NCBI GenBank assembly: GCA_020002185.1
Contig: CM034541.1
Location: forward strand, 33,975,852-34,039,851
Direction: 5' to 3'
Origin: Paraescarpia echinospica
Taxonomy: Eukaryota; Annelida; Polychaeta; Sabellida; Siboglinidae
DNA length: 64,000 nucleotides
The number at the start of each line of letters is the position of its first letter. Position 1 is the first letter of the stretch. A program made the translations under genes and the position numbers. Positions 1,305 to 41,100 of the stretch are shown here, piece after piece. The notes under the pieces are model-generated. The model was given only the letters and a program-made list of their open reading frames with translations, did no database searches and was not told the DNA's origin.

Positions 1305-1385
1305 TGACTAGTGATTTAGAATATTGATAGTTTGCATAAATTGAAGCATAGTGTTTATCACTGTGCAGGGTTTATGCCAGAACAA

Positions 1386-7474: not shown

Positions 7475-10400
7475 GTGAGGGCACAAAGACGGAGTAACAC
7501 ATGTGGGCAGAAATATAATCACACAAAAAGTCACGGAAATAAAGTAACAGTTTTGGCTAAGACAAAGATACAGGAAATAAAGTAAAACATAATTTTAGTT
7601 GATGACTAAATACACAATTGTGCATGTGTTACTGGTAATTCACTGGTGTTTGTTAAGACAGAGTTGATAGAAATGTGTCAATGTCTAGTACTGAGTTGTG
7701 TTTGTTCACACAGACTTGATAGAAGTGTATCAACGTCTAGTACTGAGTGGTGTTTGTTTAGACAGAGTTGATAGAAGTGTGTCGATGTCTAGTACTGAGT
7801 GGTGTTTGTTCACACAGACTTGATAGAAGTGTATCAACGTCTAGTACTGAGTGGTGTTTGTTTAGACAGAGTTGATAGAAGTGTGTCGATGTCTAGTACT
7901 GAGTGGTGTTTGTTCACACAGACTTGATAGAAGTGTATCAACGTCTAGTACTGAGTGGTGTTTGTTTAGACAGAGTTGATAGAAGTGTGTCGATGTCTAG
8001 TACTGAGTGGTGTTTGTTCACACAGACTTGATAGAAGTGTATCAACGTCTAGTACTGAGTGGTGTTTGTTCAGACAGAGTTGATAGAAGTGTGTCAGTGT
8101 CTAGTACTGAGTGGTGTTTGTTCAGCGTTGCTAGAGGTGTGTTAGTGTCTAGTACTGAGTAGTGTTTGTTCAGACAGAGTTGATAGAAGTGTATCAATGT
8201 ATAGTGCTGAGTTGTGTTTGTTCAGACAGAGTTGATAGAAGTGTGTCAATGTCTAGTACTGAGTGGTGTTTGTTCATCGTTGATAGAGGTGTTTTAGTGT
8301 CTATTACTGAGTGGTGTTTGTTCAGACAAAGTTGATAGAAGTGTATTAAAGTCTAGTACTGAGTGGTATTTGTTCAGACAGAGTTGATAGAAGTGTGTCA
8401 GTGTCTAGTACTGAGTGGTGTTTGTTCATCGTTGATAGAGGTGTGTTAGTGTCTAGTACTGAGTGGTGTTTGTTCAGATAGAGTTGATAGAAGTGTCAGT
8501 GTCTAGTACTGAGTGGTGTTTGTTCAGACAAAGTTGATAGAAGTGTATCAAAGTCTAGTACTAAGTGGTGTTTGTTCAGACAGAGTTGATAGAAGTGTGT
8601 CAGTGTCTAGTACTGAGTGGTGTTTGTTCATCGTTGATAGAGGTGTTTTAGTGTTTAGTACTGAGTGGTGTTTGTTCAGACAGTTGATAGAAGTGTGTCA
8701 GTGTCTAGTACTGAGTGGTGTTTGTTCATCGTTGATAGAGGTGTGTTAGTGTCTAGTACTGAGTGGTGTTTGTTCAGACAGAGTTTATAGAAGTGTCAAC
8801 GTCTAGTACATAGTGGTGTTTGTTCAGACAGAGTTGATAGAAGTGTCAACGTCTAGTACGTAGTGGTATTTGTTCAGACAGAGTTGATAGAAGTGTGTCA
8901 GTGTCTAGTACTGAGTGGTGTTTGTTCAGACTGTTGATAGAGGTGTGTCAGTGTCTAGTACTGAGTGGAGTTTGTTCAGACAGAGTTGATAGAGGTGTGT
9001 CAGTATCTAGTACTGAGTGATGTTTGTTCAGACAGAGTTGTTAGAAGTGTCAATGTCTAATACTGAGTTGTGTTTGTTCAGACAGAGTTGATAGAAGTGT
9101 GTCAGTGTCTAGTACTGAGTGGTGTTTGTTCATCGTTGATAGAGGTGTTTTAGTGTCTAGTACTGAGGGTGTTTGTTCAGACAAAGTTGATAGAAGTGTA
9201 TCAAAGTCTAGTATTGAATGGTGTTTGTTCAGACAGAATTAGCGGAGGTGTGTCAGCGGTCGGAGAGATACATCGGTACGGAGGGGGGAGGCATGGATCA
9301 GGCCATCTCCTTCCTAGCTCAGCCCGGAACTGTGAGTTGTCTTTGTGTAATCAGGTGGCAGTAACTATCACATTAAATTTACAACTTATCCGGAAATGTG
9401 GTGCGTTATAAGAGCTACCAAGATGACCATACGTATTTTGACATCTAAATTCTCAGCTGTCCAAAAACATACCGTATGAAATATATTTGTTGGTGTTCAG
9501 AAACATACAGTCTTTATGTACTGATGTACTTGCTAAAATGATAGATGTCCACAAACATACAGTATAGAAAATAATTATTTTTGTAGATTGTTCGGGTGAC
9601 CGAAATTAGTATGTCTGGAGTTAAACTAATTTTATTAGTTTGACAAAGAGGCTAAGAAACCAATACACGCAAATGTAAGTCAACAGCGGAACCAAACCAA
9701 CATTTGCTAGTGATGCTAATGAACCCATAACCAATAACATGACCTCGTCCACTTCGCATACAACCAACAAAACATGTAACAAAATAGTGAGTTTGTACAC
9801 ATCTTTGATAAGGCGTACAACTGGTGTATTATGTGGCAACTAAGATCGTTCTTCTCCACAATTGTCCCAGGCCAAGTTAATCGAGTTCAACCCCGTGCGA
9901 GCGACAGATGTTTGTCTACCAGAGAGCGCTGTCTTTGTCATCAGCAACAGTTGCGTTGAGTTGAACAAAGCCGCAACCAATCACTTCAACACACGAGTGG
10001 CTGAGTGCAGGCTCGCAGCACAGGTCAGAGGTCGAGGTTCACTATTTTATGTTTGTGATGGTTTGTCTATTAGTAAGCTGTGGAAGTTTATAATGGAGCT
10101 AGTAGCCTTATGACTAATGATTGCTATTCTGTTCTTCTTGCTCCCTGTACAGGGATGAGGGCATTGGCATAGCCACAGACCCATTTGCCCGTCTTCAAGA
10201 CTGGCAGATGACTGGCCAAGACTGGTAATTACAACTGATAAGATTAGTGGAATTTAGAGTGGGCCAGCTGGCGACTAGAATAATTAATAGTTACATGTCT
10301 AGGGGTCCACATAATTACTAACATTGGCACAACTGCTGGCAAACAATTACTTCTGGCTAAGGGCCTGGGTGAGGTCAGGGCCTGGGTGAGGTCAGGTGTA

Positions 10401-13400
10401 GTATTGTTGAACCACTCATTTTCTTCTTTTTGCATAACTTCCTCTCTCCATCTTTCATCCTCACACGCTCGTCTCAAGTCTCTCCTCACACAGTCCTCCC
10501 ATCTCAGTTGTTCTTCCCTTCTCAAGTGTCCTTGCTGTAGTTCCGCCTATGCCCTCTTTCCAAGTTGCCTGTGTCCATCCTTGTCAAGAGGCCTGCCCAT
10601 CTCATCCAACTTCTCACCAGTCTTCCAGTTAGGCTGCATTCCACATTGCAGTGGACAAATCACCCCTGAAAATATGTTCCATGCTAAAATAATTATATAT
10701 TGTGTGTAACAGTTAAGATATATAATGTGACCAAACCTTCCACATCATACTGATTTCTTTCTGATACTGACTTTTATGATTTGGGGTGGTTATATGCTAA
10801 TTTGATGTGGATAATTTTTGGATTTATTTAAAATAGAAAAAATTAGATGAAGAACAATTTTTTGTTATGTTGAACAGACATATAGGAAATCAAATGACAA
10901 AGTTATTGCAATGAGAACACAGCTACTTTTTATCCTAGGCAGATGTTCATTGATACCTAGCAGATTTTAGTTGACACAGATATATTTCATAGGCTGATGA
11001 ATCGTGACATTTGATATGGATGTATGTGCCACTTAATCAATGACAAATGTCATACCATTTTATGTAGTTTTAAGTAGAATTTCAGCTAACAAATATTAAT
11101 ACTAGTAAACTTCTAAAGCGCCCAGATATCCTCAGGAATCTGAGCTCAGAGGCGCAACATAAAAGAGTCATGTACAGAGATGCTCAAGATTCATCATTAG
11201 AACAAGGTTAGAGTGGGAATGCGATTTCAAACAAATCAGTTTTTAGTGGGTTTTTTCTCTCAAAAGATGGCTATAGTTTCAGATGTTTTTAATGTGATAG
11301 GCAGTTGATTCCAGATTTTGGGTGCAGCTGTGAAACAGAGGATCTGAGGTTCCGGGGGATATCAGAAAAACACAGGCGACTAACCAAATAGGATGGCTAT
11401 TGTGTGGAAAGGGCATTACTGTGCCCTTGTTATTTTAGTATACATCAAAATTAATAAATACGTCATATAATGTGCATCCACTATGCTGTCAGACACATCA
11501 ATCTATCCTCTTTGTTCACTTATGTTCGTCTGTGCCCGTGCTTTTAAACAGGTAGCCTATTTTATGAACTTAACACAGCTGTGACACCAGTTTTACAGCC
11601 ACATTACAGTGTACTCAAATTGTGGCTTCAAATGCCATTACTCGATAAAGCAAAATTATACATATAGTAATAAAAATAACCAGAACTTTGCTTTTAGAAT
11701 ATTTTTACAGAGATTAAGTTTTAGTCATCGTTCATATTGGCTATTGCACCAGGTATAGTCTTTATCATCAAAATGGGGTACAGGGTGGGTAGCCTAATTA
11801 TTCCAATATGCTAGTAAAATGGATATATTATTGTGTCACAGCCAGTACTTTCATACACCCTGACATATGCCTCAGATACACTTATTTGTGAGTTTACTTT
11901 TTTATCTATGAAGGAACAACATTTGTGGATCGCAGTGGTGTAGTGGCTAGAGCTTCGGACTCTCGACCGAGAGAACCCGGGTTCGAATCCTGTGCTGCGA
12001 TGTCGAACATTGGGCAAGTTCGTTCACTCTACGTTGCTCCAGTTCACTCAGCTGTATGAATGAGTACCTGGCTATAGACAGTGGTTAATATTTCTGTACA
12101 AATAGTCTTCGCACATTAATTGCAACATGGCTTAATGCTTCCCAGAGAAGTCGAGATGGTGTTCGATTGAACAGGTCTGCCAGGGAGTAAAGTGTAAAGT
12201 GCTTTGAGCAGTTCTGAGGTCTGGATACTGTGCTATATAAGAACTTATGTTCACCTTACATAGTGTAAGGTCATGATGACCACTCTGGGATATGACTGAT
12301 GGACGGGTGTCCTCAACAGGACAGGACAATTGACATATGACTAATGCTGCATCACAATCACCTCTTGTGTGTAGTGATTGTGATATGTAACAGCAACTAA
12401 CTTGAATTTGATTAATGCACAACCAGAAGCCAGTTACTGTCTAAGTAGGGGTACTAATGGTGAGAAATGATGTCAATGCAACATGTGCTTTGTGTGTTAT
12501 TGACAGTCACTGTTATTGATAGGCAAACATGGATACAGTTTCGGATGATTTTTACACAATAGGCAGGTGAATCCAGATTTTGGGTGCAGCTACAGAGAAA
12601 ACACATTTGCCAATGTGAAGCTTAGTTTTAGGAAAAAGTTGATGATCTGAGATTCCTGGGGATATCTGAAAAATGCAGGAGACTAAACAAATAGGATGGG
12701 TGCTGTTTAGAAAGGGCGTGGTATGTAATTCCCCGGTAGTGGCTAACTTGAATTTGTTCGATATTCAACCAGGAGCCAGTGCAGCTGTTTCAGAAGGTGT
12801 AGTGATGGTGAAAAACGATTTCAATGAAACAAGTACCATGTGTGTGTTATTGAGAGAGAAACATGACTGCAGGTGATGGCTGTGAAGAAGGACATTCCAT
12901 GGCAGGAGGTCAAGCGCCTGGGTGACCTTCAGAAGAAACTGGGCGTTACCCTTGATGACATGACCCAGTTAGTGGACACACTTCTCCACGCGGAGCCGTA
13001 CAGTAAGAAGGAGGTGTGCGACATTCTCAATGTGGAGACTGATGAACTGGAGGAGACGAGTCTGAACCAGCAGACGAGGCAGTGTAAGTCATGGTTCATT
13101 CAGGTAGTTTGTCGTTTTGCTACATACAACGATGTTCTCCATCTAATAATAGAATGCAGTTATGACATAGTCAGAGATTATCAGGTCTGTGTTGTTGCAT
13201 TGGACAGGAACAAATATCACATTAGAGAGCAATAGAGAAGGTCTGTAAACGCCCCGATCTTGAAACATATCCCGATCGCACCCCGTGCTAAGTTGGATTG
13301 TTGAGCAATCGAACTGAGCGCGTGGTGGGATCAGGATAGGGATATGTTTAGAGATCGGGGCGCTTACAGACATTCTATTATTCATATAAGAAAATACAAT

Positions 13401-16400
13401 AAAGTGGAACAATTGTGACCCGTGTACCTGGGTTGAATACAGTAAATGACTATGTATAGTTGTATACAATAACAGGCTGACCTATCAACAAAAATGGCAG
13501 ACAACCAATTTACGCAGTTTGCTATTGATCTTGTCGACTGCGCACAAATGACAGCTGACAACGGTGATACGAAATGACAGCTGACAACAGTGATACAAAA
13601 TGACAGCTGACAACGGTGATACGAAATTACAGCCGACAACGGTGATACGAAATGACAGCCGACAACGGTGATACGAAATGACAGCCGACAACGGTGATAC
13701 GAAATGACAGCCGACAACTGTGATACGAAATTACAGCCGACAAAGGTGGTACGAAATGACAGCCGACAACGGTGGTACAAAATGACAGCCGACAACGGTG
13801 ATACGAAATGACAGCCGACAACGGTGATACGAAATGACAGCCGACAACAGTGATACAAAATGACAGCCGACAACGGTGATACGAAATGACAGCCGACAAC
13901 GGTGGTACGAAATGACAGCCGACAAAGGTGGTACGAAATGACAGCCGACAACGGTGATACGAAATGACAGCCGACAACGGTGATACGAAATGACAGCCGA
14001 CAACGGTGATACGAAATGACAGCCGACAACGGTGATGCGAAATGACAGCCGACAACGGTGATGCGAAATGACAGCCGACAACGGTGATGCGAAATTACAG
14101 CCGACAACGGTGATGCGAAATTACAGCCGACAACGGTGATGCGAAATGACAGCCGACAACGGTGATACGAAATGACAGCCGACAACGGTGATACGAAATG
14201 ACAGCCGACAACGATGATACGAAATGACAGCCGACAACGGTGATACGAAATGACAGCTGACAACGGTGATACGAAATGACAGCTGAGAACGGTGATACGA
14301 AATGACAGCTGAGAACGGTGATACGAAATGACGGCTGACAACGGTGATACGAAATGACGGCTGACAACGGTGATACGAAATGACAGCCGACAACGGTTAT
14401 ACGAAATGACAGCCGACAACGGTGATACGAAATGACAGCCGACAACGGTGATACGAAATGACAGCCGACAACGGTGATACGAAATGACAGCCGACAACGG
14501 TGATGCGAAATGACAGCCGACGACGGTGGTACGAAATGACAGCCGACGACGGTGGTACGAAATGACAGCCGACAACGGTGGTACGAAATGACAGCCGACA
14601 ACGGTGATGCGAAATGACAGCCGACAACGGTGATGCGAAATGTATCTACAACTTTGAATTAATTCAATTGTCAATTCATTAGGCGCGTGACATAAATTTA
14701 AAATGATTAATTTTCGTTCTGCATTTTGCTGTAATTGTACCTGGTGGCTGATGGGGTAGCTCGAGTAATCGGACTCAGTCTGTAGCCTTGTGCAATTTTT
14801 TCCGTTACTGTACCAACATCTCCAATTATTTGTGCTACTATACCACTATCACCAATTATCTATGCTACTCTACCATTATGTCCAATTGTTTGTGCTACTT
14901 ACTATTATCTCCAATTATTTGTGCTACTATACCACTATCACCAATTATCTATGCTACTCTACCGCTATGTCCAATTGTTTGTGCTACTTACTATTATCTC
15001 CAATTATTTGTGCTACTATACCACTATCACCAATTATCTATGCTACTCTACCACTATGTCCAATTGTTTGTGCTACTTACTATTATCTCCAATTATTTGT
15101 GCTACTATACCACTATCACCAATTATCTATGCTACTCTACCACTATGTCCAATTGTTTGTGCTACTTACTATTATCTCCAATTATTTGTGCTACTATACC
15201 ACTATCACCAATTATCTATGCTACTCTACCACTATGTCCAATTGTTTGTGCTACTTACTATTATCTCCAATTATCTGCGCTACTATACCACTATCCCCAA
15301 TTATCTATACTACTCTACCGCTATGTCCAATTGTTTGTGCTACTTACTATTATCTCCAATTATTTGTGCTACTATACCACTATCACCAATTATCTATGCT
15401 ACTCTACCACTATGTCCAATTGTTTGTGCTACTTACTATTATCTCCAATTATTTGTGCTTCTATACCACTATCACCAATTATCTATGCTACTCTACCACT
15501 ATGTCCAATTGTTTGTGCTACTTACTATTATCTCCAATTATCTGCGCTACTATACCACTATCTCCAATTATCTATACTACTCTACCACTATGTCCAGTTG
15601 TTTGTGCTACTTACTATTATCTCCAATTATTTGTGCTACTATACCACTATCACCAATTATCTATGCTACTCTACCATTATGTCCAATTGTTTGTGCTACT
15701 TACTATTATATCCAATTATCTGCGCTACTATACCACTATCTCCAATTATTTATGCTACTCTACCAATATCTTCAATTGTGTGTGCTACTCTACCACTATC
15801 TTATATGATTACATTGGGATTTAATTAACAACTGTGCCATTAATGTAAAACAATGTATATTTGAGACAACATTAGTCTTCTACACAGCCCATGTAGGACC
15901 ATGCCAGGAGTTATATGATGTTTCTGCACCAATTTTGAGTTGTATACTTATGTTTATCTAAAATGACTGGTTCTAATTTTTTTTTTTTTAAATGCCTTTG
16001 GAGCACGTATTTGTCAATAACATGACAATGACACAGGTAATTACTGCAAACGTACACTTACCCCGCTTATTTTGCCAGTCCACATACATTTCCGTCAGAA
16101 CCTCCGGTAATTATCCGTATGCACAATATTTGCAAAGATAGAGACATTTTCGCTCAAAAAAGTTGTGAAACTAATTGAATTTGTATGATATTACATAGTA
16201 ATATGCTTGAAACATTTGTAGCAGACATATAAATCTGTTCCTCATTGACACCTAAATGACTTTCAGTGGACAGCTTCAAGCTCCGTGACCGGGCATTGCA
16301 CGTATACAGCGAGGCTCAGAGGGTCCTGCAGTTCAAGGCCGTCTGTGACAACCAACCGAATGACGCCCTGGAGATGCTGGGGCAACTCATGAACGAGAGT

Positions 16401-17901
16401 CACGCCAGCTGTCGTGACCTCTACGAGTGCAGCTGTCATGACCTTGATGTCTTGGTTAACCTTGCTGTGTAAGTACATGTGCACCCTGTTTTACTGTTAA
16501 ATTACCTTGGCCCAGTAACACTGACTTTGTTTTATCAAGAAAAAGATGATTTTGGCACACTGTGCTCCTATTAGACGTACAGTTCGCTTAACAAATATTT
16601 GAAACGCGAAAATATGTTTTTTTAATTTAAATAAGCATACAGGGGTGTACACCCATTTTCTGGGGTTCATGGGTACAGCCATCTCAGCAGAGGTGACTAG
16701 CAAGCAATTTATGCATCTACACATGACAAAAGGGCACCAGGACCCTGTAAAGTCTGATAATTTAGGTGGACCTTTTGTTATTGTTTTCATCACTGATCTT
16801 TGAATCTAGTGTGACATTGGTAGAAATTAAATGACAATGATGGATTTAGCAGTCAAGTTTGGCGTTAAGATCGCTGTCAGGGCATCACACTGCTAAAAGG
16901 GGTGTACACTAATTAGGGCTTGTACGCTTAATAGAAGGAATACTGTATTTGTTTCAAAAATACCAGTCTTTAGTTCTCATTAGTCAGATGTTTTTACTGT
17001 CCGACATAGATGTTTTAAATGTTAACAGGATTGTCACAGAATCTGATATTCTGATATATAAGTCTGTGGATGAGTTGTAACACGCTTGAAAATGGCTGTT
17101 CATCACACCTTGACATTGTAGTGTTTGGCACCGTATGATTCCATTCCTTCTAACTGTCGGGTTTTCACCACTCTGTGGCATGAACATGTCTACTTTTATA
17201 AAGCAACAAAGACTAAAAAGAAATACGACAAATTATGACAATTTTAGCATTTTAATGATCGGAAAGCTCAAACTACCATAACCACTGTACGTGTTCAGAC
17301 ATCGTATGTTTTCGGACACCCTAAAAATGTACAAAAATTATTTTTCTGTACTATATGGTTTTGAACAAACATAATTTGTTGTATGTCTGTATAGATACAG
17401 TACATTGTGACTATGTTTTTTCAGACATCAACAATAATTTGTTGGTATTGTATGTTTTCGAACAGCTGAGAATTTAATTATTTTTAGGTGCCAAATAAAT
17501 GGCAATGCTGTTATTACGGTAGCTACACATCAGTTGACCAATTAAATCTTTCTAGATTCCATTTAAACATGGGTACATTTAATTTGGCATATTTCATCTA
17601 AAATAATAAATTTTTTTGTGAATTCTTTGTTACTTGATCAGCTTAATTTCTTAACAAGGCATCTCGAATAATTAAAAAATATGGTTTTATTTTCAGCCAA
17701 TCAGGAGCCCTCGGGTCGCGCCTCACCGGAGCTGGTTGGGGCGGTTGTGCTGTGTCATTGGTACCAGCCAGTCAGAAAGAAGTGTTTATTCGCAAGATGT
17801 ACGATGGATTCTATGCGAAAGACGCACATCGCAAAAGTGTTGTCAAGGAGAGCTTGTTTGCCACGCAGCCAGGAGGGGGAGCCACTATATATGCCGCATG
17901 A
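7234..17901 (+). CDS. GALK2: N-acetylgalactosamine kinase (GALK2), C-terminal six coding exons
   Basis: Cytosolic GHMP-family sugar kinase that phosphorylates GalNAc (and galactose at high levels) at the 1-position using ATP, in amino-sugar salvage. The joined exons are 7234-7474, 9233-9331, 9871-10023, 12873-13083, 16267-16468 and 17697-17901. All junctions are GT..AG, phases agree across every junction, and about 370 codons result. The ATP-binding GHMP motif 2 ([11 protein letters not shown]) is in the first visible exon. [12 protein letters not shown] and [18 protein letters not shown] follow. Motif 3 ([12 protein letters not shown]) is in the last exon, and the C-terminus ends [14 protein letters not shown]. 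The whole length aligns with vertebrate GALK2 (458 aa) rather than GALK1. Motif 1 (sugar binding, GRVNIIGEH-like) and about 95 N-terminal residues are missing, so their exons must lie left of the window. Convergent with HMGCR. Confidence 0.96.
7640..9232. repeat. Minisatellite of about 52-bp units that copies the adjacent GALK2 3' splice site
   Basis: About 30 units fill the intron up to the acceptor of exon 9233-9331. A typical unit contains tgtttgttcag|ACAGAG and GAGGTGTGTCAG. The real junction is tgtttgttcag|ACAGAA, followed 7 bases later by GAGGTGTGTCAG. So the intron side is identical and about 19 of the first 24 exon bases match. Units vary in length (roughly 43-53), some lacking the 'agacagag' block, with a regular two-unit alternation at 7690-8060. 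Confidence 0.97.
9233..9331 (+). CDS. GALK2: GALK2 exon, TEGGGMDQ block
   Basis: 33 codons, phase 0 on both sides, acceptor gttcag and donor gtgagt. Encodes [20 protein letters not shown] and then [13 protein letters not shown], matching the human [20 protein letters not shown] segment. The Asp of GMDQ corresponds to the family's catalytic aspartate region. The acceptor coincides with the last unit of the minisatellite. Confidence 0.96.
9412..9605. mobile_element. MITE of the 'accgtatg/aaacatacagt' family
   Basis: AT-rich segment with repeated 'tgtccaaaaacata', 'gttcagaaacatacagt' and 'gtccacaaacatacagtat'. Related segments occur at 17262-17520, 24760-24955, 30540-30735 and 46060-46225. Boundaries are approximate. 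Confidence 0.55.
9871..10023 (+). CDS. GALK2: GALK2 exon, substrate-binding core
   Basis: 51 codons, phase 0 both sides, acceptor gtcccag, donor CAG|gtcaga. Encodes [14 protein letters not shown] and then [20 protein letters not shown], closely matching human AKLIEFSPLRATDV and SCVEMNKAATSHFN. Confidence 0.96.
10153..10224 (+). other. Exon-like segment that would introduce a stop (possible poison exon)
   Basis: 72 bases bounded by ctgtacag and gtaatt, 130 bases after a GALK2 exon. In the reading phase set by that exon (phase 0) the second codon is TGA. GALK2 family alignment goes directly from the AAQ end of the upstream exon to the exon at 12873, so it is not needed for the protein. It could be a nonsense-mediated-decay cassette or chance. 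Confidence 0.15.
10395..10530 (-). mobile_element. Degraded LINE C-terminal fragment (tentative)
   Basis: The minus strand reads [20 protein letters not shown] and then [10 protein letters not shown]. This resembles the 'LRYKDVCKRDL...W' tail found after the reverse transcriptase in many LINE ORF2 proteins. Stop codons surround it. A short relic at best. Confidence 0.35.
11090..11410 (+). repeat. Dispersed repeat, copy 1
   Basis: The stretch containing gattccagattttgggtgcagct, a ggatctgaggttcc block and aaataggatgg recurs at 12530-12720. A third partial copy of the downstream portion (caaccagaagccagt) lies at 12370-12510. Possibly the 3' part of a LINE; class unknown. Confidence 0.6.
11930..12245 (+). 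mobile_element. tRNA-derived SINE, full length
   Basis: The head (11930-12003) looks like a tRNA. It has an A-box-like tggtgtagtggctagagc, a B-box gggttcgaatcc, and acceptor arms tcgcagt / gctgcga that pair. The anticodon region is degraded, so I do not call a functional tRNA. A body follows with ttgggcaagttc and gttgctccag, then a tail with aaagtgctttgagcag and ctatataagaac, typical of tRNA SINEs whose tail is shared with a partner LINE. A 5'-truncated inverted copy sits at 36692-36893. Confidence 0.8.
12370..12510 (+). repeat. Dispersed repeat, partial copy
   Basis: Carries ctaacttgaatttgatt, caaccagaagccagt and a ggtgagaaatgatgtcaatg block. All are echoed in the same order at 12740-12860, where the last block reads ggtgaaaaacgatttcaatg. 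Confidence 0.55.
12530..12860 (+). repeat. Dispersed repeat, copy 2, abutting a GALK2 exon
   Basis: Same ordered blocks as 11090-11410 followed by those of 12370-12510. It ends within about 15 bases of the acceptor of exon 12873-13083. Its long + frame is part of the repeat, not coding sequence. Confidence 0.6.
12873..13083 (+). CDS. GALK2: GALK2 exon, helical linker
   Basis: Acceptor gactgcag, donor gtaagt. Enters in phase 0 and leaves in phase 1. Encodes the less conserved region [20 protein letters not shown] followed by [16 protein letters not shown], corresponding to human WDKVLRLEEVQAKLGISLEE and LHPEPYNPEEICRCL. Confidence 0.93.
13231..13378. mobile_element. Small hairpin MITE (about 148 bp)
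   Basis: Two arms of about 46 bases are near-perfect inverted repeats (gtctgtaaacgccccgatct near 13241; its complement, with one change, ends at 13371). The arms surround a loop of about 56 bases. Located 150 bases after a GALK2 donor. Target duplication not clear. Confidence 0.75.
13545..14642. repeat. Minisatellite, 26-bp unit, about 42 copies
   Basis: Unit built on gaaatgacagccgacaacgg followed by tgatac. Left-end units read 'agctga' rather than 'agccga', and 'gatgcg' and 'ggtggtac' variants cluster. The long minus-strand frames with repeating [13 protein letters not shown] are artefacts of this array. Confidence 0.97.
14790..15815. repeat. Higher-order minisatellite, 89-bp unit made of three ~30-bp subunits
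   Basis: Three related subunits beginning ccaattatttgtgctac, ccaattatctatgctac and ccaattgtttgtgctac cycle in fixed order. This gives an 89-base higher-order period with about 11 copies. Since 89 is not divisible by three and the unit lacks stops, all three + frames stay open for about 1 kb. None is a gene. Confidence 0.95.
16267..16468 (+). CDS. GALK2: GALK2 exon, HVYSEA...CRDLYECSC
   Basis: Acceptor ctttcag, donor gtaagt, entering phase 1 and leaving phase 2. Encodes [20 protein letters not shown] and then [17 protein letters not shown], close to human YQRAKHVYSEAARVLQFKK and LMNQSHMSCRDMYECSC. Confidence 0.96.
16557..16950 (-). mobile_element. MITE of the 'ccgtattcg' TIR family, inverted copy
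   Basis: Colinear with the reverse complement of 18617-19022 over almost its full length. Shared blocks include taatttaggtggacctt, tttgaatctagtgtga, gctaaaagg and ggtgtacactaattagggc. Its ends are more decayed (aatactgta at right). It lies in the last GALK2 intron. Confidence 0.82.
17262..17520. mobile_element. MITE of the 'gttttcggacacc' family
   Basis: Ends are loosely inverted (aaactaccataacc versus ttattacggtagc). The interior has repeated gtatgttttcggacac and gtatgttttcgaacag. A related copy lies at 24760-24955 with the same order of blocks. Confidence 0.6.
17697..17901 (+). CDS. GALK2: GALK2 terminal coding exon with GHMP motif 3
   Basis: Acceptor ttttcag, enters in phase 2, ends at TGA 17899-17901. 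Encodes [20 protein letters not shown] (glycine-rich GHMP motif 3) and ends [17 protein letters not shown], parallel to human KQSLFATKPGGGALVLLEA. Flanked on both sides by inverted copies of the same MITE. Confidence 0.96.
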
Positions 17902-18614: not shown

Positions 18615-18616
18615 TA

Positions 18617-19022: not shown

Positions 19023-19024
19023 TA

Positions 19025-23056: not shown

Positions 23057-23171
23057 TTATGAGGCTCTGTTTATACATGTTCCCGGTTCATTTGTTTTGC
23101 TGTGTGGTGCCGGTGGAGTCAACGATGGTGGCGGTACCGGAGTGGCATTGGGGTTCATGTTCAGCACAGAC
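23057..23171 (-). CDS. HMGCR: HMGCR coding exon 19 (regulatory Ser, proline-rich tail)
   Basis: Acceptor tactttctag; enters in phase 2, completing an Arg codon so the junction reads HNR-SVLN, parallel to human HNRSKIN. Ser869 corresponds to the AMPK-phosphorylated Ser872. A proline-rich tail follows ([20 protein letters not shown]), ending with TAA at 23059-23057. The tail is longer and unlike the vertebrate C-terminus. Phase and the HNRS match support the exon. Confidence 0.85.
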
Positions 23172-29100: not shown

Positions 29101-32100
29101 AAAAGAGTATATTATAAAATGCAGTAAAGATATATTTAAAACATATCAAAAAGATGACATTAAAAAAATTATAACTACAAAAAAGGATTTTTATAAAATG
29201 TATAGCATATCAATAAATAACCTATACACATTTTTTTAATGTTAAAATGCTCCAAGTGAGAACTGAGACATACCAGTTAATGGCGCAGGGCTTCTTGTCT
29301 GTACAGAAATTTCCGCTCAAACTGAGAATCTCCATGTCTGGGAACTGGTTGTCTACGAGGAAGTTTAGGGCCTTCTCTGCACCCTGAAACAAAACCTGGG
29401 TTACACAGCGAACTAATATTAAGTGACACGGGCCTGTCCTGCACGTAGGCCAAAAATAGCTGTCTAAGTCATGTCCCTTCAATGTTGTGACCTTGGAAGA
29501 AATGCACACATTATAATCTTACCTTTCAATGTTTTTAGTTTCCTCGACAAACAGTCCAAAATTAATATAAAAAACATGTATTTACGAACCCTCAGATAAA
29601 AAGCCAATCGACAACATGAAACTAAATCACCTTGTTTCTCAAAATGTCATTTTTTTAAAGTTTGCTTCAATTTTAGTAATTAAAAGAAAACTACTGAACA
29701 ACAAATGAGGTATAATTTTAAGGCTTATGACCTGTGGAATCCCAAGAGATAAAAAAAACTCCATTTCATAATTTTCCAACCCACGTTGCTGTGGCAAAAG
29801 TGACATATTTATTGAGAAGACGTACCTTGGAGACCATGTTCATGCCCATGGCGTCACCCGTGAACACAACGAAGCGGATGTAGAGGTTTCTTGCCGACTG
29901 AACAATGTGAACTTTCTGCAACTTTGCAAATCTACAACCAACAGCAGAGTAAAAAATAATAAAAATGTCAGCTGTCTGAAAACATGCAGTACAGCAACAT
30001 AATTATTTTTTGGAAAATGGTACAAATATTATTTTATGTAGGAATGTGGTGTGGTCTGCATGCGCGCGTGTGTGTTTGTATGTATGTATGCGTGTGTGTG
30101 TGTGTGTATGTATGCATGTGTGGGTGTGTGTGTATGTGCGTGTGTGCGTGCGCGTGCGCGTGTGTGTATGCATGTGTGTATGTATGCGTGTGTGTGTGTA
30201 TGTATGCATGTGTGGGTGTGTATGTGCGTGTGTGTGCGTGTGTGTATGCATGTGTGTATGTATGCGTGTGTGTGTCTGTATGTGTGCGTGTGTGCGTGTG
30301 TGTGTGCTTGTATGTATGTGCATGCGTATGTGCGTGTGTGTGTGTGTGTATGTGTTTGTGTGTGTGTGTGGGTGTGTGTGTGTGTGTATGCGTGTGTGTG
30401 TATGCGTGTATGCGCATGTGTGTGTACAGGTTTCTCACTGATTGCGCAATCTGAACTTTCTGCAGCTTTGCAAATCTACAACCAACAGCAGAGTAAAAAA
30501 CAGCATCATACTGACTGTATGTACTGGACACCTGAGAAAAAGTTAATTCACAGCTGTCTGAAAACATACGATACAAAAAAATTTGGGTGTCTGGAAACAG
30601 TCATGATGGACTGCATGTATCAGCACACATAAAATTAATAGGTGTCCGCAAACACACAGTACAGAAAAAGAATTATTCTTGTAGATTTTTATGGTGTCCG
30701 AATACATTGAGTTATATGGTACATATTTTATTTTGTCTATGAATATGGTGTGGTGTGTGAGTTCATGTGTGCATGCGTTCGTGTGTACACAGTGTGCGAG
30801 TATGTGGTGTGGTGTGGTGTTCATGAGATTGTGTGTACGCAGTGTGCGAGTATGTGGAATGTGAGTGTGCATGTGCGCTTGGATTATGATTCTATGTGGA
30901 AGACGCTGGAAGAAGAAAGCACTAAGATGTAGTACGCACCGACTAGTGCTGTTGAATTCCTCCTGTACTAGGGCGAAGTTGTCCAGATCTTCCATCCACA
31001 ACTTCACCTCACTGGCCCTCTGCGCCGTCTGGAAGCGCACCACCGGTGCACGCGTCATGCCATTCGCCGTCAGACAACTGTGAACACCACCGGACGACTG
31101 AAACACCACAATATCATCTTTGTAACCATTACCACAATAACATCATCCTTTTTCCGAGGACCACATTGGAAACAAGTGTTTGCCCTCTCTTGTGTCATTA
31201 TAATATGGTATTTATTTTATGTATTTACACGTTTACATTTTTACACTGAATAAATCAATCAATCCTTGTACACAAACTTTGTACTAACACCACAATAACA
31301 TCATCTTTGTACACCAGTGTTCAAAATTATGGCATTTGAATCGGCGGCAACTGATTCTAAATGTGTTCCGCTGAATCAGTTTGTTAAAATGCTGAAGTTA
31401 TGAGCCAGACCTGCCGACTCATCTCCATTTGGTGGCCATATGTACAGCACAGTTCATCAGAGAGTTTACATCCAACTCCGAGAAAGATCACCTCAAGGTC
31501 AGTTACTGAAAAACCGTGACTTTGGTCTAATACGGATCATTAGTTAGTCCAGTCTTATTGTGAAAACAGCAGAAACAAATGCCAGATACAACTGGATGAT
31601 TACAAACTTCTGTATACAGTATCACAACAGCACTTTTCTGCAGAAAATACAATAAAATGTTTATTTAGGTAACGTGTTAAAATAAAAAATAATTATGAAT
31701 TCCTCCTATACTAAGGCGAGGTTGGAAAAGGCATCTTTCGAGAAAACAAAAGGTCACCATGTGATACTTACTGAAAGTGCTCGGCATCCTCTATTTGTGC
31801 TGGCAATTAGACAGCCTTCAGTCGTTGCCATGGGAACGTAATATGTCTTCCCATCAAGCAACAGTGGTCCGGCAAAGCCAACGGGAACAGGGACATAGCC
31901 AAGGACATTTTCACAGCAAGCTCCCTCGACCTACAACACAAGGTGTCCTGGTTAGGGATAGGTTTAGCATGTGAAAACACATTCAGAGAAAACCACTGGC
32001 TTGATAATGTTGACTGTAGATGCAAATGGTTGGATAGTATCAACACTTTCAGGTGTATAGGCCCAAACAACCATTTAACATGAATGCTTCAGTACTAAAA

Positions 32101-35100
32101 CGTAGAGTTTATAAAGATTTCTTTGGAAGGAAACAAATTTATTAGCACCCCAAAGAGTAAATTGGAATGATGATAAAGTATGACATTCAAATGCACTGGG
32201 GGTATTTCACTTACGTATTTGTAGTCGTAGTTTGTGTACGGTAGTTTCTGAAGTGCTGAGTCGGCAGGTAGTGATTTTGATAACATCTGCCTCCTACAAG
32301 ATAATAAACACATTCACGGGTTAATCTGATGGTTTCAAAACCTTTATCTGACTTAAAGTCAAGTATAATTGGATTTTGCAAGTTTAGTTATCTGCTTTCG
32401 GCACCCTCATCAGCATTATACTGAACCACCCTCGGTCGTCATGTGACGTTGTTGGTGACCAGCGATAAACAGGAACACTGGCTAAAATCTTCCCGCGATA
32501 TTCTTGAAACTGGTGACAACCACCAACAATGTCGCATGACGACCAAGAATGACTCAGTATCACTCTGATGTAGACATCGTGAGGGCGTTGAAAACTCTGT
32601 TTGAGCCACTAAGGATTCAGACAAATAACTGAACTTTTAAAGTATGAATCTAACTAAATCCAGAAGCAATCTACATGGTGAACTATAAATTTACTATTAG
32701 CAACATCTTACACCTGTCCCTGGAATATGGCTATGACTACTCAACAACTCAATACAGCAACCAGTTCATGTGACACTTGATCACTACAGACAGACACATA
32801 GTATTGTTTGCTAGAAACACATTGTTCTTACCATAACAAAAACTCATTATTTAGATCACGTCTCCATTCTAATTTTTCGACACGCCTAAACTAACAAGCG
32901 ATCTATTTCTGCATCTGTGCCTTTCATCTACCACTGCAACTTATACGAGTGAGTGCTCCACTGCATTACACCTTCTAGAATGACTAAATGACTCGTATTG
33001 AACCACCAACCTGATGGAGATGCCACGCACATGGTTACCCAGGATGGCCTCCAGTTTGTACGCTGGGATGTGCTTTGTCTTTACTAGTTGGATGATTTCA
33101 TTATCAGTGAGTACACTCGGGCCAGCCTGGCAGAAACACAAGAAACATGTCACTTTCACAACATGTATATGTATACACACTGCTTGTTGTCGTTGAAATA
33201 CCAACCAATAAACGTTCACATGTAAAGGTGAAACAAAGTTGTCAGTGATTGATTTATGAAGCATAACATCATTAACTTAGATTTTTGCCAAAATCAAATA
33301 ATTCAGAGAATTGGAGCATTTTAAATGATCTGAAACACCCTACTGGCTACCAGCTAACAAATAAAATCATTGTGTAATCTGTTTAAATATTAGACCTTTC
33401 ATATTTAGTTTGTTTAATATATAACCTTATCAATCTATACTTAAAATAAATAAACAATAAATAATACCTCTTTATTCAAGAGAAATGTCACAATCTGCTG
33501 CATTTCATACACAAAAACAAATAAGTCTGATTTCTCATAACTGTTTTAAAATAATGTTTTCAGATTCTCATACAACTGTTTGACCAGTCTCGGCTGTGTG
33601 TCATTGAGACAAGTTTGAGCATGAGAAGTGCATTGGTTAACGTAACACACCTCAGACCGCAGCGTTGCGACACATTCATCTAACGTGCGTGCAACAACAG
33701 GCATGTTGTCTTGTGGCTCGGCGTCCGACGTCTGCGTTTCCACAGAAACGGTTTCGACCAATCGGGTGGCCCGAGGCAACTCATCGTCATTCTCGCTACT
33801 ACTGTCTGACTCATCGCCGATGGTGAAAGCTGCCTTGCTGTCCTCCTTCTTTGGGACAGCGGCACTCACTTCATTGTCTTCTGCTGTGTACAAGTCAAGT
33901 TATCATGTTACCCCACTTTACTACAGATCAAGTACTTCTAGTACAACACCCCAGTACTTCAGGTTTAACAAATGAGGATCATATTTGAAACAAGTGTACA
34001 TTTATCCTTTTATCATTATTTTATGCGTGACACTGTTTTTGACTGATTTCTGTGTACATAATTTTTATGGAATAAACTTAATATCAAAATATCAAGTCTA
34101 TATGTGAAATATTTTTAAGCAATAAACATTGATGTGTACCAAGATGGATGTATAAGCTATCCTTTATGGTATCATCCCTTTTTCCCACCAAGTGCTATCT
34201 ATACAGCTTTACCACTATACAAATTGGTGTTACTATGCAAATACACCAGACCACTCAGACCATATCTTATTGTCTCACTCAGTGGACAAGGTTTACTGGT
34301 ACTTACAAAGATTAAAGGTAGAATGTCAGCTACTGAGAAAGCATGCTTGCACATGTTGAGCATAATTCTAGAAAAAAAATGCTGCTGTCCGGGTGATGCT
34401 CAAAGTTACCGGGGTTAATGCAACATAGAAATACCACAAAAATCAAACTTCGCATCTTGAAAAAAAATGCAGAAACTGCAAAACCTGATGTTTCACATCT
34501 GGAAAAAAACCAACCCAACCTTTATCCTAAATATGAATATATCAATGACATTTACCTGTGGGAAGAATAAACGACTTCCAACTGCACCTATCTATCTTCC
34601 AAGTATCATATCCACTGTCAATACTATATACCCAGCGTCCGAGCATGGTTAGTTTTCACTCTCAAGGTATATCACATCAACTGATGCTCGTCGCTGGCCC
34701 ATCCAATAAATAGCTACACCTTTCAACCAATGAGCATTACCCCGGGACTGACGGGTTAGCTAACACTGATAGCACAAGGTGAGAAACCTTCAAGAGGTAT
34801 CTTTATCCAATCAATATCACATCTTATCATAACTTCCGACTCTTCACCGATACTCTAAATCAGGACAAGGTGATTAGAAGAACGCTGTATCAGCTTAAAC
34901 AATGTTTATCAATAACTGATCAGTCAACAACTGAAGAACTGAACAAATGATCCACTTTGAAACCATCTTTCAATGTCATCATTATAATTCTGCTTAACTT
35001 TCAGCAACCTGCACAAAATGTCTGGTGTATTTAGTTGGAAAGTTGTTTATATTTTGAAACCATGTCAACAGAATTTGGTTAGGATGACAATGTCAAGCGT

Positions 35101-38100
35101 TCCAAAGTAAGACAATTACTGATAAGATAGTTCAGGCACAGTCATTCATTCACCTGCTATCACACCTGTCATATAATTAGAAGATGACACCTCTCATAGT
35201 ATCTCTTGTCCTATAATTAGAAGAACTTGTCCAAAATAAAATCTGGACTATTTCTGGATACAATACAAAGACAGGTGTGTATTTATTTATGGAAAAAATG
35301 TGTCACGTGTCACAAACATTGACTGACTACTCTAACTTCAACAAAGGGCATTGATTATTCAATCTGTTTTAGGAATCTCATCTAGGTATTTATAACAGGA
35401 CATTTTATTACGTCTTCAGAATCCTTTCTTTACTAATTAATCTGAGTTTCCTTTTACATTTTAATTTTTTTTACCTGTATTGTGTAAAACAAATACCAGT
35501 GGCCCCTTATCAATATCCTTTACCTCACGGATCTCAGTTGAACTGCCTAACCCCTGGCTAAATATAATTGACATAGAGTATTTAATGAATCAGTAGTTTC
35601 TGGCTAATGGAAACAAAGTTTGACCAGTGTTATGCTGGCCACCCAGAAGCATGTTAACTTTCTATTTCATACCTCTAAAAAAATACTGCATGGCAAAGTG
35701 TCTGACTTTCAGGTCAACCCCATTTACCTACAACCCTAAAGTTTACATGAGGAAGAAAACCTAGATAAACATCATCACACTGACTGTGATGTACAGAACT
35801 CAAAACTGTGGTATCATACGGACTCATTTATGCAATCAAGAGATACCGTCCAAAGTGTTGGTCACAACCTCCTTGTGAAATGTCATATTTAAGTTAACTG
35901 TCACATCTAAAAAACTACTTATCCTATCTTTACCAAATTTGCAGTGTATCAAGTCTATATGAAAAGAAGGTCAGACATTAAATAAAAATAAATTTGCATA
36001 GTGGTAACCATGGTTAGCAGATAATATGATTCTTACTATTTGTTTATACATTTTTAAAACGTAACATAACATAAAACATTAATTTTATAAAATTATTACT
36101 TTTTTAAGCAAAACTACTTCATTGCACAACTACTTACATTACTTATGATAAATAAAAAAAACGCCAAAATTTTTATTCATTTTTTTCTGTGGGACTTTCC
36201 ACAAAAATACTACCATCAGAATTTTAAAGAATTATCTTGTTTCCATGGTTACCTTTTAATATATACATAATACACTGTACATTCAATCAAGCTACAAGTA
36301 GTTTTTTAGACATTCTAGTTAATTAAAACATTACATTTTACGAGGAGTGTGACAACTAATTATCGGAAAAAACATTCACCATCCATGCAGCCTTGCTTGC
36401 AGCTAACTTTTGTCTCAGACTGTGTGATTGGCTCTTCCCCGCACGCTGTCTCGATGACAGCGATAGGCTCCGAGTTACCCTGCCAAATGACGTCCTCGGC
36501 GTCATTGTCGAAGAAGACATACTTGACAGCAAGAATGGCTGCCAGACCCAGCGTGATGGAGTAGTCCAGGGGGGGAGACAAAGCCCTGAAGTAACATGAC
36601 ACATGTCACATGGTTCACATCACATGACGGCAACAGTAACATTACTTGAATAGCAGCCTCACAGAACAACGGAAGACACAAAAAAGTAAGTTCTTGTATA
36701 TCACAGTATCCAGTCCTTAGGACTGCTCAAAGCGCTTTACACTTTACTCCTTAGCAAACCTGTACAATCACTTTGACTTCTCTGGAAGCATCCAGCCACG
36801 CTGCAATTAATGTGCAAAGACTATTCGTATACAAATATCCATCACTGTCTACAGCCAAGTACTAATACAGCTGACAGAACTTAAAAGAATAAAGCTGGCA
36901 GAACACAGAGACTCACTTGAAACCTAAGAGTAATTTAGCAGATATTTTTTAAAACATTAAATACAGGTTAGCTGAGTCTCATTAACAATATGGTAGATGG
37001 CACCACAGTTGTTACTAGCTTCAACAACAACATGGTAGATGGCGCCACAAATGTACTAGTTTCACTATGAAATAAAGGGCACTGCCAATGTCTAATTTTG
37101 TCTATCACTAATTGACTACATGTGTACTAAAAACGCTAATCATCATTATTCTCTTCACTAAGTGACACATGGTGATTCCAAAGATAAACAGGTATGTGAT
37201 ATTCATTACAAACTCAACATTTTTACTACTAGTTTTGCCGAAACATTTAGGTCCGACATGAAATGGTGGTGGCCAATTAAATACCCACACACCACGTGCG
37301 AATGGCAGCCACAGAAAGCTAAACAGCTTCATTAATGTCATTCACCTCACAAATTCTCCAACTTACTTGTAGTCATTTCTGAGCAAAGCTCTGTGTTTTA
37401 GGTGACGGAGCCTTCTGAATGTAAACCTTCACTGATGAGCCGCTAGTTCTACTTTATAAAGCTTTATACGGAGAAACAGCCTTTCCTTTGCCACACCTTA
37501 TTCATTCAGTTAACAACACACGTAGCCACAGAGAGTCATTTATTCACGTGGTGGCCAGGACTCAGGTTTACGCTAACAGGTTGTTTAACAGAACTCTAAA
37601 GAACCAGAATGGACTGTCCGAAACAGTTGTCTGCAGCCATAATGGATACTATAAAAACTAGACTAGGCAGGCTCACCTGAAGTTCCTGTATTGCTTTCAC
37701 ATACGTCCCCATATTGACGTAATGACCTTCAGGTTCTTGCCAATTAATATATATGTGTGTCCCGCCACAGGGAACCGGGTGTTAAGTTGCAGGGTCTACT
37801 CTGGACACGGGCCAAAAATAGCTGTCTGTTCCATAAATGTTGTGGTTGTGGCAGAAGTACATAGCTTATAGTCTCATCTTTCAACATGTAGTTTATTATT
37901 TAAAAAATTTTTTTTTTATAAAATACGTGCATTTCCGAATCCAGATATTTTAGCAACAAATCAAAATTCTACTGAAGATATTTCAACAAATGAGGTATCA
38001 TTTTAAAGCTCACGGTCTGTGGAATTAAAGAAGAAACAGAACTAAATTTTAAAAATTTTGTAACAAAATAGTGGAACCTCCTTATTAAGGTCACCTTTGG

Positions 38101-41100
38101 GACTGAGCTAGTGATCTGAATAGCAAGGTAACTGTATTAGCAGGATGAATATCCTACTATTTACTGTATGTGGAAATAATCTGGGACTGTTCAAGGGTGA
38201 CCTTAATTGCAAAGTGGCTGTATTACCGAGGTGACTGTAAAGCGAGGTTCTCACTGTGCCCTCTGTTGCAGCAGGTCACATTCAGACTTAGACAACAATG
38301 AACTCACTTCAGGAGGTAGAACTGTATTGTTCCAAGTATAGTAAAGTGTAGGACATTGATCCCTCTAATACTGTCACCTCGTTAATCAATCACATACGCC
38401 CAGTCCCAAGGGGGACCTTAATTGTGAGGTTCCACTTTACAGACATAGACAATGATGCACTCACTTCAGGAGGTAGAACTGTATTGTTCCAAGTATAGTA
38501 AAGTGTAGGATATTGATCCCTCTAATACTGTCACCTCGTTAATCAATCACATACGCCCAGTCCCAAGGGGACCTTAATTGTGAGGTTCCACTTTACAGAC
38601 ATAGACAATGATGCACTCACTTCAGGAGGTAGAACTGTATTGTTCCAAGTTTAGTAAAGTGTAGGATATTGATCCCTCTAATACTGTCACCTTGTTAATC
38701 AATCACATACGCCCAGTCCCAAGGGGACCTTAATTGTGAGGTTCCACTTTACAGACATAGACAATGATGCACTCACTTCAGGAGGTAGAACTGTTTTGTT
38801 CCAAGTTTAGTAAAGTGTAGGATATTGATCCCTCTAATACTGTCACCTTGTTAATCAATCACATACGCCCAGTCCCAAGGGGGACCTTAATTGTGAGGTT
38901 CCACTTTACAGACATAGACAATGATGCACTCACTTCAGGAGGTAGAACTGTATTGTTCCAAGTATAGTAAAGTGTAGGATATTGATCCCTCTAATACTGT
39001 CACCTTGTTAATCAATCACATACGCCCAGTCCCAAGGGGACCTTAATTGTGAGGTTCCACTTTACAGACATAGACAATGATGCACTCACTTCTGGAGGTA
39101 GAACTGTTTTGTTTCAAGTTTAGTAAAGTGTAGGATATTGATCCCTCTAATGCTGTCACCTTGTTAATCAATCACATACGCCCAGTCCCAAGGGGACCTT
39201 AATTGTGAGGTTCCACTTTACAGACATAGACAATGATGCACTCACTTCAGGAGGTAGAACTGTTTTGTTCCAAGTATAGTAAAGTGTAGGACATTGATCC
39301 CTCTAATTCTGTCACCTCGTTAATCAATCACATACGCCCAGTCCCAAGGGGACCTTAATTGTGAGGTTCCACTTTACAGACATAGACAATGATGCACTCA
39401 CTTCAGGAGGTAGAACTGTATTGTTCCAAGTATAGTAAAGTGTAGGACATTGATCCCTCTAATACTGTCACCTCGTTAATCAATCACATACGCCCAGTCC
39501 CAAGGGGACCTTAATTGTGAGGTTCCACTTTACAGACATAGACAACGATGCACTCACTTCAGGAGGTAGAACTGTACTGTTCCAAGTATAGTAAAGTGTA
39601 GGACATTGATCCCTCTAATACTGTCACCTCGTTAATCAATCACATATGCCCAGTCACAAGGGGACCTTAATTGTGAGGTTCGACTTTACAGACATAGACA
39701 ATGATGCACTCACTTCAGGAGGTAGAACTGTTTTGTTCCAAGTATAGTAAATTGTAGGACATTGATCCCTCTAATACTGTCACCTCGTTAATCAATCACA
39801 TACGCGCAGTCCCAAGGGGACCTTAATTGTGAGGTTCCACTTTACAGACATAGACAACGATGCACTCACTTCAGGAGGTAGAACTGTTTTGTTCCAAGTA
39901 TAGTAAAGTGTAGGATATTGATCCCTCTAATACTGCCACCTCGTTAATCAATCACATACGCCCAGTCCCAAGGGGACCTTAATTGTGAGGTTCCACTTTA
40001 CAGACATAGACAACGATGCACTCACTTCAGGAGGTAGAACTGCCAGAGAGGGATGTCAGGACTGAGGTCCTGGGAGACACTCTTGGAGAGCAGGAAGTCG
40101 TCCTGGGGGTGAGTGGCCGCAGCTACCCACCGACTGTGGGCGTGGACCAGTACAAGACCCGCCGACTGCAACAGACAGACACACCAACTCTATAGCTCAG
40201 CTCTATCTAGACATCCATCCATCTGCCTTATGGACGGGCTCAGTTTGTGGAAATTTGAGGAGCAAGAAACATTACTGACACTCACTGTTATTTAGGTCCA
40301 TTACGCTTTTAAAAATGTGTGTCAATGTTGAAACAATAAAGGCAGCTGATACTGAAATAAGAAGACAGCGTCGACAAGAGCGAGCGAACACACTAGATAA
40401 CTGCCCCAACAGGACAGCAGCTGTCAACGACTCCAAGTTCATATGCGGACACTATGCAAGCTTGTCAACAGACAATAACAAAACATGCAAACAAACGGGA
40501 TGATGGATGTCATTCTTGAAAACGAGGTGATCACCGATGATGATGAATTTATGTACATACCGTATTCGTTCTAATTAGCGTACATGCCCTAATTAGCGTA
40601 CACCCCATTTTTGGCGATGTCGGGAATCCGTAATGCAATGTCCTCTCCCCCGATATCAAATTACTGTGACATCTGACGATCTTTAGTTTTACATAACATT
40701 TTTTCACACATATCTGCAGACTTTGCAGCGTTCTTGTATCCTCTTGACCACGCGTGAATATATAAATAGCTGGTAACACAAAGCAATCTACATTAATAGT
40801 ACTAAACACGTAGTATATTCCAATGTTTGATCGAAAGGTGAATGTATCCAACTCAGACGACACGCTTACTTATTAGCACCCAAACAGCGAGACAATGGTG
40901 CCACCTGGCGAATATACAGGTAGCTATGTAGTAAGGGACCAGTTAGTATTTATTCTCTTGCAATAGGCAGTTTCGTTGTGGCTGAGCGGAGCAACCGAGT
41001 ATTCAAAAAATATTGTCTTGGACTTGGTTGAATACAAAATATCTGGGATAATACAAACAGAATATATTGATAAATGGTCACAAAACTATTATGTTACGAT

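What the first reader, a model, noticed from the sequence alone, without database searches (positions are those of the whole stretch)
7640..40165. Recurring pattern: exon-edge capture by tandem repeats
Four independent cases in two adjacent genes join a tandem repeat to the splice junction of the exon next to it. Known background: tandem duplication of splice-site-containing DNA is a proposed route for intron gain. Here the product is arrays of decoy sites inside existing introns. Possibilities: selection against loss of the junction keeps repeats in register, replication slippage initiates at splice-site sequence, or the arrays have a splicing role.
Basis: inference. Interest (0 to 1): 0.9.

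Follow-up and report, generated by a model that had tools for sequence, protein, structure and literature searches.

The report
Splice-junction minisatellites in a tubeworm
In two genes of what is likely a deep-sea tubeworm, short DNA stretches that straddle the border between a coding segment and its intron recur up to about sixty times inside the intron, leaving rows of look-alike splice sites that the cell would have to ignore; the same kind of repeat is already known from lancelets.

Summary
Among 47 exon edges modelled in two genes (GALK2, + strand; HMGCR, - strand), four carry a nearby repeat crossing the splice junction with high identity (alignment scores 36-50; next best 17). Three are minisatellites: 52 bp at a GALK2 acceptor, 44 bp at the HMGCR exon 17 acceptor, 156 bp at the HMGCR exon 7 donor. 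The fourth (HMGCR exon 14 acceptor) is one displaced copy beside a (GT)n tract, not an array. HMGCR identity (92% Ridgeia, 91% Lamellibrachia, then 66% full-length) places the window in a vestimentiferan annelid. The anatomy is that of the 'mirages' published for amphioxus genes; my searches of the held library showed no annelid report. The best reading is ordinary tandem duplication across a junction, expanded on the intron side, with splicing predicted to ignore the decoys. Excess at exon edges is only suggestive (3 of 12 arrays against 0.98 expected, P = 0.06), and the window was picked for this feature. No sign of a splicing role: decoy dinucleotides are no better kept than the rest of the unit. 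New are the lineage, the scale (58 decoy acceptors) and, in two of four cases, a jump in divergence at the junction.

The parts
7232..17904 (+). GALK2-like gene, last 6 coding exons seen (tblastn found no upstream exons in the window; start of the first exon assumed)
   Evidence: tblastn and exon models; human GALK2 structure 2a2c E=1.3e-133; GHMP kinase domains
7644..9232 (+). 52-bp minisatellite (31.4 copies by TRF) in GALK2 intron, ending at the genuine acceptor; 21 decoy TTTGTTYAG acceptors
   Evidence: TRF; junction-crossing alignment score 36; decoy list
9233..9331 (+). GALK2 exon whose first 24 nt correspond to the exon-derived half of the 52-bp unit (18 of 24 identical to decoy consensus)
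23057..55941 (-). HMGCR gene, 19 coding exons, 906 aa
   Evidence: HMG-CoA_red and sterol-sensing domains; 92% identity to Ridgeia piscesae
25294..28175 (-). 44-bp minisatellite (65.7 copies by TRF) in HMGCR intron 16; 58 decoy TTACAG acceptors, 21 identical to the genuine site over 17 nt
   Evidence: TRF
25135..25293 (-). HMGCR exon 17; its first 7 nt (GACCCTG) belong to the unit (6 of 7 identical to decoy consensus)
30425..30503 (-). single displaced copy of the exon 14 acceptor edge (28 nt intron + 51 nt exon, limits cut by eye); decoy exon start at 30475
30068..30425 (.). (GT)n-rich tract between the exon 14 edge and its displaced copy
29826..29931 (-). HMGCR exon 14 (genuine acceptor at 29932|29931)
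38283..40042 (-). 156-bp minisatellite (11.3 copies by TRF) reaching 17 nt into exon 7; 11 decoy donors GAA|GTGAGT identical to the genuine one over 9 nt
   Evidence: TRF
40026..40165 (-). HMGCR exon 7 (genuine donor at 40026|40025); its last 17 nt belong to the unit
41885..43394 (-). CA-rich array stopping 2-4 bp before the exon 6 acceptor edge (exon starts at 41880); does not cross the junction

Best explanation
These are 'mirage'-type minisatellites: DNA segments straddling a splice junction that likely arose by local tandem duplication with one breakpoint in the exon and one in the intron, and then expanded on the intron side, leaving look-alike splice sites that the cell is predicted to ignore. 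Geometry explains why they sit where they do (inferred): when a segment across a junction is duplicated in tandem, the copy joined to the rest of the exon stays functional and every further copy falls into the intron, where it is tolerated. The genuine splice signals on the intron side would then evolve together with the array, while selection on the protein keeps the exon side apart (inferred; a step at the junction is seen in two of the four cases). The genuine site would be chosen by exon definition, because the decoys lack the exon body and its partner site (inferred). Use of a decoy gives a premature stop in each case modelled (computed), so leakage would be removed by nonsense-mediated decay (inferred).
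For: Junction-crossing repeats at 4 of 47 edges with scores far above the others. Both junction types occur and the arrays lie on the intron side, as the geometry requires. The exon-derived half of the GALK2 unit still reads as the protein: decoy consensus T-E-L-I-E-V-C-Q against exon T-E-L-A-E-V-C-Q, three of four changed codons synonymous (consensus, translated by eye). Junction step, summed over four cases: intron side 144 of 150 identical to decoy consensus, exon side 83 of 99 (Fisher P = 0.0013; sites not independent, lengths chosen after seeing the alignments). Decoys equal to the genuine site in the core signal: 11 donors (9 nt), 21 acceptors at E17 and 7 at GALK2 (17 nt); genuine sites are of ordinary strength (rank 7 of 23 donors; 11, 13, 14 of 23 acceptors). 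Premature stop for 11 of 11 (E7), 58 of 58 (E17), 21 of 21 (GALK2) decoys and for the E14 copy (rechecked). Same anatomy, with splicing said to be regular, reported for amphioxus.
Against: No transcript of this species was available, so correct splicing is assumed. Arrays meet exon edges somewhat more often than random seeds predict, which chance placement does not fully explain. The junction step comes from the GALK2 and E14 cases (18 of 24 and 42 of 51 on the exon side); at E17 it is 6 of 7, and at E7 it is reversed: mean decoy identity 0.995 on the exon side, 0.935 on the intron side. The E14 case is not an array.
Confidence: 0.75

Rival explanations
1. Exon edges act as anchors. Purely intronic arrays decay and vanish, but an array that overlaps an exon always keeps one copy protected by protein selection, which can reseed it; so edge-spanning arrays accumulate beyond random expectation.
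For: Observed 3 of 12 (4 of 13) against 0.98 (1.11) expected; 4 of 12 arrays with an end at or within 20 bp of an edge against 0.30 expected for whole-array placement. Of the 11 E7 decoys, 10 carry the exon's present 17-nt edge exactly and one differs at one base, although that edge reads QFYLLK here, QFYFQK in Ridgeia and QFYLKK in Lamellibrachia; so the array was likely renewed from, or homogenised with, the present exon edge.
Against: P values are weak and come from a window picked for this feature. By eye, similarity to the exon does not rise towards the exon-proximal GALK2 copies. The GALK2 unit has drifted from the exon (18 of 24), which does not suggest continuing reseeding there.
Confidence: 0.15
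2. The arrays have a splicing function: rows of decoy sites slow or tune splicing, and leakage into decoys makes unproductive transcripts that lower gene dosage, with repeat number as the setting (compare the ABCA7 VNTR in people).
For: Decoys match genuine sites and give premature stops in each case modelled. In ABCA7 a 25-bp VNTR whose unit begins with a splice donor leads to retention of one unit and a frameshift, and its length affects splicing.
Against: Signal dinucleotides are not better kept than other positions (59 of 64, 10 of 10, 20 of 30); in GALK2 a third of copies have lost the AG. The units of the four cases are unrelated. No RNA data.
Confidence: 0.08
3. Assembly or gene-model artefact: collapsed or duplicated reads, or wrong exon borders that only seem to touch the arrays.
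For: Long tandem arrays are hard to assemble; copy numbers in the window could be wrong.
Against: Copies differ from each other (85, 94 and 97% matches); each border is a GT-AG intron in frame and, by eye, fits the Ridgeia and Lamellibrachia HMGCR proteins across the junctions and human GALK2.
Confidence: 0.02

Closest known systems
Amphioxus 'mirage' minisatellites (Adh3, globins BflGb6 and BflGb9, troponin C, PGBD5); PMC3087553 and PMC3902484, passages read; the Adh paper of 2002 seen only as a reference entry
   Same: Tandem units (10-72 bp in Adh3, 150-160 bp in globins) that contain an intron-exon boundary, 5' or 3', many but not all with AG/GT signals; concerted evolution inside the cluster with cluster-boundary copies excluded
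   Different: Annelid instead of cephalochordate; more copies here (about 65 at most, against 3 and 6 in the two BflGb6 haplotypes); regular splicing and length instability are reported for amphioxus but not testable here
Human ABCA7 intron 18 VNTR (PMC5954066, passages read)
   Same: 25-bp minisatellite unit that starts with a splice donor; use of a decoy donor retains one unit and shifts the frame
   Different: Variable in people with measured splicing effects; the passages read do not say that the unit holds exon sequence
Human interferon-induced 6-16 (IFI6) minisatellite providing multiple splice donors (title seen in a reference list; gene identity recalled)
   Same: Minisatellite carrying repeated donor sites
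   Different: By its title these donors are used in the transcript; here no decoy use is shown
Earthworm metallothionein intron 1 minisatellites and exon 4 duplications (PMC12783039, passages read)
   Same: Annelid; large intronic minisatellites; exon 4 copies reported absent from the final transcript
   Different: The passages read do not say that units cross a splice junction

Membership tests
Mirage minisatellites | Repeat unit contains an intron-exon boundary of the adjoining exon | tested here: met
   GALK2 acceptor, HMGCR E17 acceptor, HMGCR E7 donor; also the single E14 copy
Mirage minisatellites | Tandem array in the minisatellite size range | tested here: met
   Units of 52, 44 and 156 bp with 31.4, 65.7 and 11.3 copies; not met by the E14 case
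Mirage minisatellites | Both 5' and 3' boundaries can be affected | tested here: met
   One donor and two acceptor arrays
Mirage minisatellites | Copies at the cluster boundary escape homogenisation (stated for the globin arrays) | tested here: inconclusive
   For the exon-edge copy: exon side 83 of 99, intron side 144 of 150 identical to decoy consensus; seen for GALK2 and E14, not for E7
Mirage minisatellites | Regular mRNA splicing despite the decoys | not testable with these tools
   No RNA of this species; predicted HMGCR proteins of two relatives read through the corresponding junctions (by eye)
Mirage minisatellites | Copy-number instability, also somatic | not testable with these tools
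   One sequence only
Functional splice-donor minisatellite (IFI6, ABCA7 type) | Decoy sites used in transcripts | not testable with these tools
   No RNA; decoy dinucleotides not specially conserved

The most novel reading that the evidence does not exclude
Exon edges are evergreen seeds of minisatellites: protein selection preserves one copy for ever, the array keeps being reborn from it, and in return the gene's working pyrimidine tract and splice dinucleotide become part of the array and evolve with it, with the splice junction as a border of concerted evolution. If so, tubeworm and lancelet genomes would hold many natural splice-site competition experiments, including one acceptor chosen correctly over 58 upstream look-alikes.
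Probability: 0.2. Interest if true: 0.65.

Novelty: new member of a known kind. Interest (0 to 1): 0.42.

Why it matters
In my searches of the held library mirages under that description turned up only in lancelets (listings, partly capped). Finding them in an annelid suggests that they may arise wherever introns are rich in minisatellites and are not a lancelet oddity. They give ready-made tests of two open questions: how the spliceosome picks one site among dozens of equal ones, and whether duplications across splice junctions feed intron gain, since each decoy could become a new intron border.

Tried and rejected
Hypothesis that the window is amphioxus (from recalling mirages there): rejected by protein identity. 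Other arrays as exon-derived: 9 consensus units compared with the 25 modelled exons and 15 nt around them, both strands, gave scores 10-14, each within the range of its own 30 base-composition shuffles. The 45-bp array upstream of the first GALK2 exon, suspected by eye of sharing a 10-mer with the exon edge: rejected (best score 11, shuffles up to 13). CA-rich array at 41885 as a crossing case: rejected (that edge is not among the 14 best listed, whose lowest score is 11). RNA family search of the window: no hits at gathering score. Whole-array placement test (P = 0.0002): kept as a record, but that null forbids exon overlap and is too lenient. In one search the count '0 of 143 GT at or above the real score' is a rounding artefact; it and the other score-threshold counts there are not used, only the identical-sequence counts. 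GALK2 homologues: no listed identity above 65%, and no siboglinid among the named ones of the 120 listed (of 751; some have no name), so the organism rests on HMGCR alone. In 'premature stop' would also have counted a transcript without any stop; one search shows that every one of the 58 and 21 has a real early stop. The recalled DOI of the amphioxus Adh paper was not held; a later reference list gives another DOI, and the paper is known to me only from citations and recall.
Full report
What is in the window. The two genes are GALK2 (+ strand, last 6 coding exons, 7232-17904; start of the first of these assumed) and HMGCR (- strand, 19 coding exons, 55941-23057, 906 aa). Exons were located with recalled human proteins as guides and fixed by GT-AG borders and reading frame. 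GALK2 matches the human enzyme structure 2a2c (E = 1.3e-133), and HMGCR has the reductase and sterol-sensing domains. HMGCR is 92% identical to Ridgeia piscesae and 91% to Lamellibrachia satsuma; the next full-length hit has 66%, and two hits reach 72% over half the query. The window is therefore likely from another vestimentiferan tubeworm (Siboglinidae). The GALK2 search named no siboglinid among the best 120 of 751 (some unnamed), so the placement rests on HMGCR.

The observation. I searched 47 exon edges for repeats within 4 kb crossing the junction by at least 6 nt on each side. Four edges score 36-50 and the rest 17 or less: GALK2 acceptor 9232|9233; HMGCR E17 acceptor (exon from 25293); HMGCR E14 acceptor (exon from 29931); HMGCR E7 donor (exon to 40026). 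Three belong to minisatellites of 52, 44 and 156 bp. The E14 case is one copy of about 28 nt of intron and 51 nt of exon (limits cut by eye), 544 bp away, with a (GT)n tract between. The four units are unrelated. A CA-rich array stops 2-4 bp before HMGCR exon 6 without crossing.

Is it more than chance? The sequence identity is. The position is less clear. Arrays hold 15,825 of 39,722 intronic bp; in the same test 41.5% of 800 random intron positions score 20 or more, 6.4% of the 498 of these outside TRF arrays, and 2.0% of 400 exon positions. Exon edges (4 of 47) are therefore poorer in repeats than introns at large. Taking each of 12 arrays within the modelled genes (three 55-bp blocks merged; (GT)n and the arrays upstream of the first modelled GALK2 exon left out) as one seed duplication dropped at random on edge-crossing or intronic positions gives 0.98 expected against 3 observed, P = 0.063; with the E14 copy 1.11 against 4, P = 0.017; with the exon part limited to 40 nt 0.65 against 3, P = 0.023, and with at least 8 nt per side as well 0.58 against 3, P = 0.018 (in that last run case 2, with 7 exon nt, should strictly not count). 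Whole arrays placed inside introns give 0.30 expected against 4 of 12 with an end at or within 20 bp of an edge, P = 0.0002. Since the window was chosen for this feature, I call the excess suggestive only.

Anatomy and history. The unit is part exon, part intron. In GALK2 the exon half of the decoy consensus still spells the protein with one changed residue and three synonymous changes (translated by eye), so it likely comes from coding sequence. At HMGCR E7, 10 of 11 decoys carry the exon's present 17-nt edge exactly and one differs at one base, where this species reads QFYLLK, Ridgeia QFYFQK and Lamellibrachia QFYLKK; the array was therefore likely formed or homogenised after the lineages split. 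Summed over the four cases, the intron side of the genuine edge matches the decoy consensus at 144 of 150 sites and the exon side at 83 of 99 (Fisher P = 0.0013; sites are not independent, and the lengths were chosen after seeing the alignments). Case by case, exon side: GALK2 18 of 24, E17 6 of 7, E14 42 of 51, E7 17 of 17; so the GALK2 and E14 cases drive it, and at E7 mean decoy identity is higher on the exon side (0.995 against 0.935). Where the step is seen, it is the reverse of the usual order of conservation and fits an exon copy held by protein selection beside an intron side that evolves with the array.

Splicing. The genuine sites are ordinary: rank 7 of 23 donors (E7) and 11, 13 and 14 of 23 acceptors (E17, GALK2, E14) on a matrix made from the window's own introns. 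Decoys equal them: 11 donors identical over 9 nt, 21 E17 decoys identical over 17 nt among 58 with TTACAG, 7 identical over 17 nt in GALK2. Each decoy modelled, used as exon border, gives a premature stop: 11 of 11, 58 of 58, 21 of 21, and the E14 copy. Within the arrays the AG or GT is not better kept than other positions (59 of 64, 10 of 10, 20 of 30, against mean dinucleotide retention of 0.94, 0.96, 0.86), so there is no sign that decoys are maintained; in GALK2 a third have lost it. The likely chooser of the genuine site is exon definition (inferred from established knowledge of splicing of short exons between long introns).

Known or new. Tandem repeats across intron-exon boundaries are known in amphioxus as mirages: Adh3, globins (BflGb6 units of 150-160 bp with 6 and 3 copies in two haplotypes; both kinds of boundary), troponin C and PGBD5, with splicing said not to be disturbed and an intron-gain model proposed (PMC3087553, passages; PMC3902484, passages). 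In people the ABCA7 VNTR unit starts with a donor, and decoy use retains one unit (PMC5954066, passages). A minisatellite giving multiple splice donors in an interferon-induced transcript is known to me from a title and recall. In earthworm metallothionein genes, intronic minisatellites and exon 4 copies absent from transcripts are reported (PMC12783039, passages). A C. elegans study links an intronic minisatellite to multiple alternative splicing (PMC4039745, passages). The Ridgeia genome paper, in the six passages found for these terms, does not describe such arrays (PMC9921365). Searches for annelid or other reports showed none: searches listed every paper found (1, 15, 1, 1), only 15 of 424 and 15 of 31, by title and start of abstract. 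I file this as a new member of a known kind: mirages in an annelid, at larger copy number.

Limits.

Noticed in passing
617-1315 (-): Open reading frame with a reverse transcriptase domain (PF00078, E=7.2e-23), likely a non-LTR retrotransposon fragment upstream of GALK2.
   Followed up: partly
11929-12002: tRNA-like sequence (ARAGORN, type not assigned); may be the head of a tRNA-derived SINE in GALK2 intron 3.
   Followed up: no
53616-55560: Two blocks of the same 55-bp minisatellite separated by about 1 kb whose ends are GGGTTTAAC-rich inverted repeats; looks like a mobile element inserted into the array in HMGCR intron 1.
   Followed up: partly
48911-51620: About 100 copies of a 27-bp unit in HMGCR intron 1, open in several frames; unit shows no relation to a modelled exon.
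   Followed up: partly
41885-43394: CA-rich array that ends 2-4 bp before HMGCR exon 6, so the region of the acceptor's pyrimidine tract is itself array sequence.
   Followed up: partly
40026-40042: HMGCR exon 7 end encodes QFYLLK where two relatives differ (QFYFQK, QFYLKK), while it matches the array; conversion of the coding edge by the array is possible. One decoy (39089) differs at one base.
   Followed up: partly
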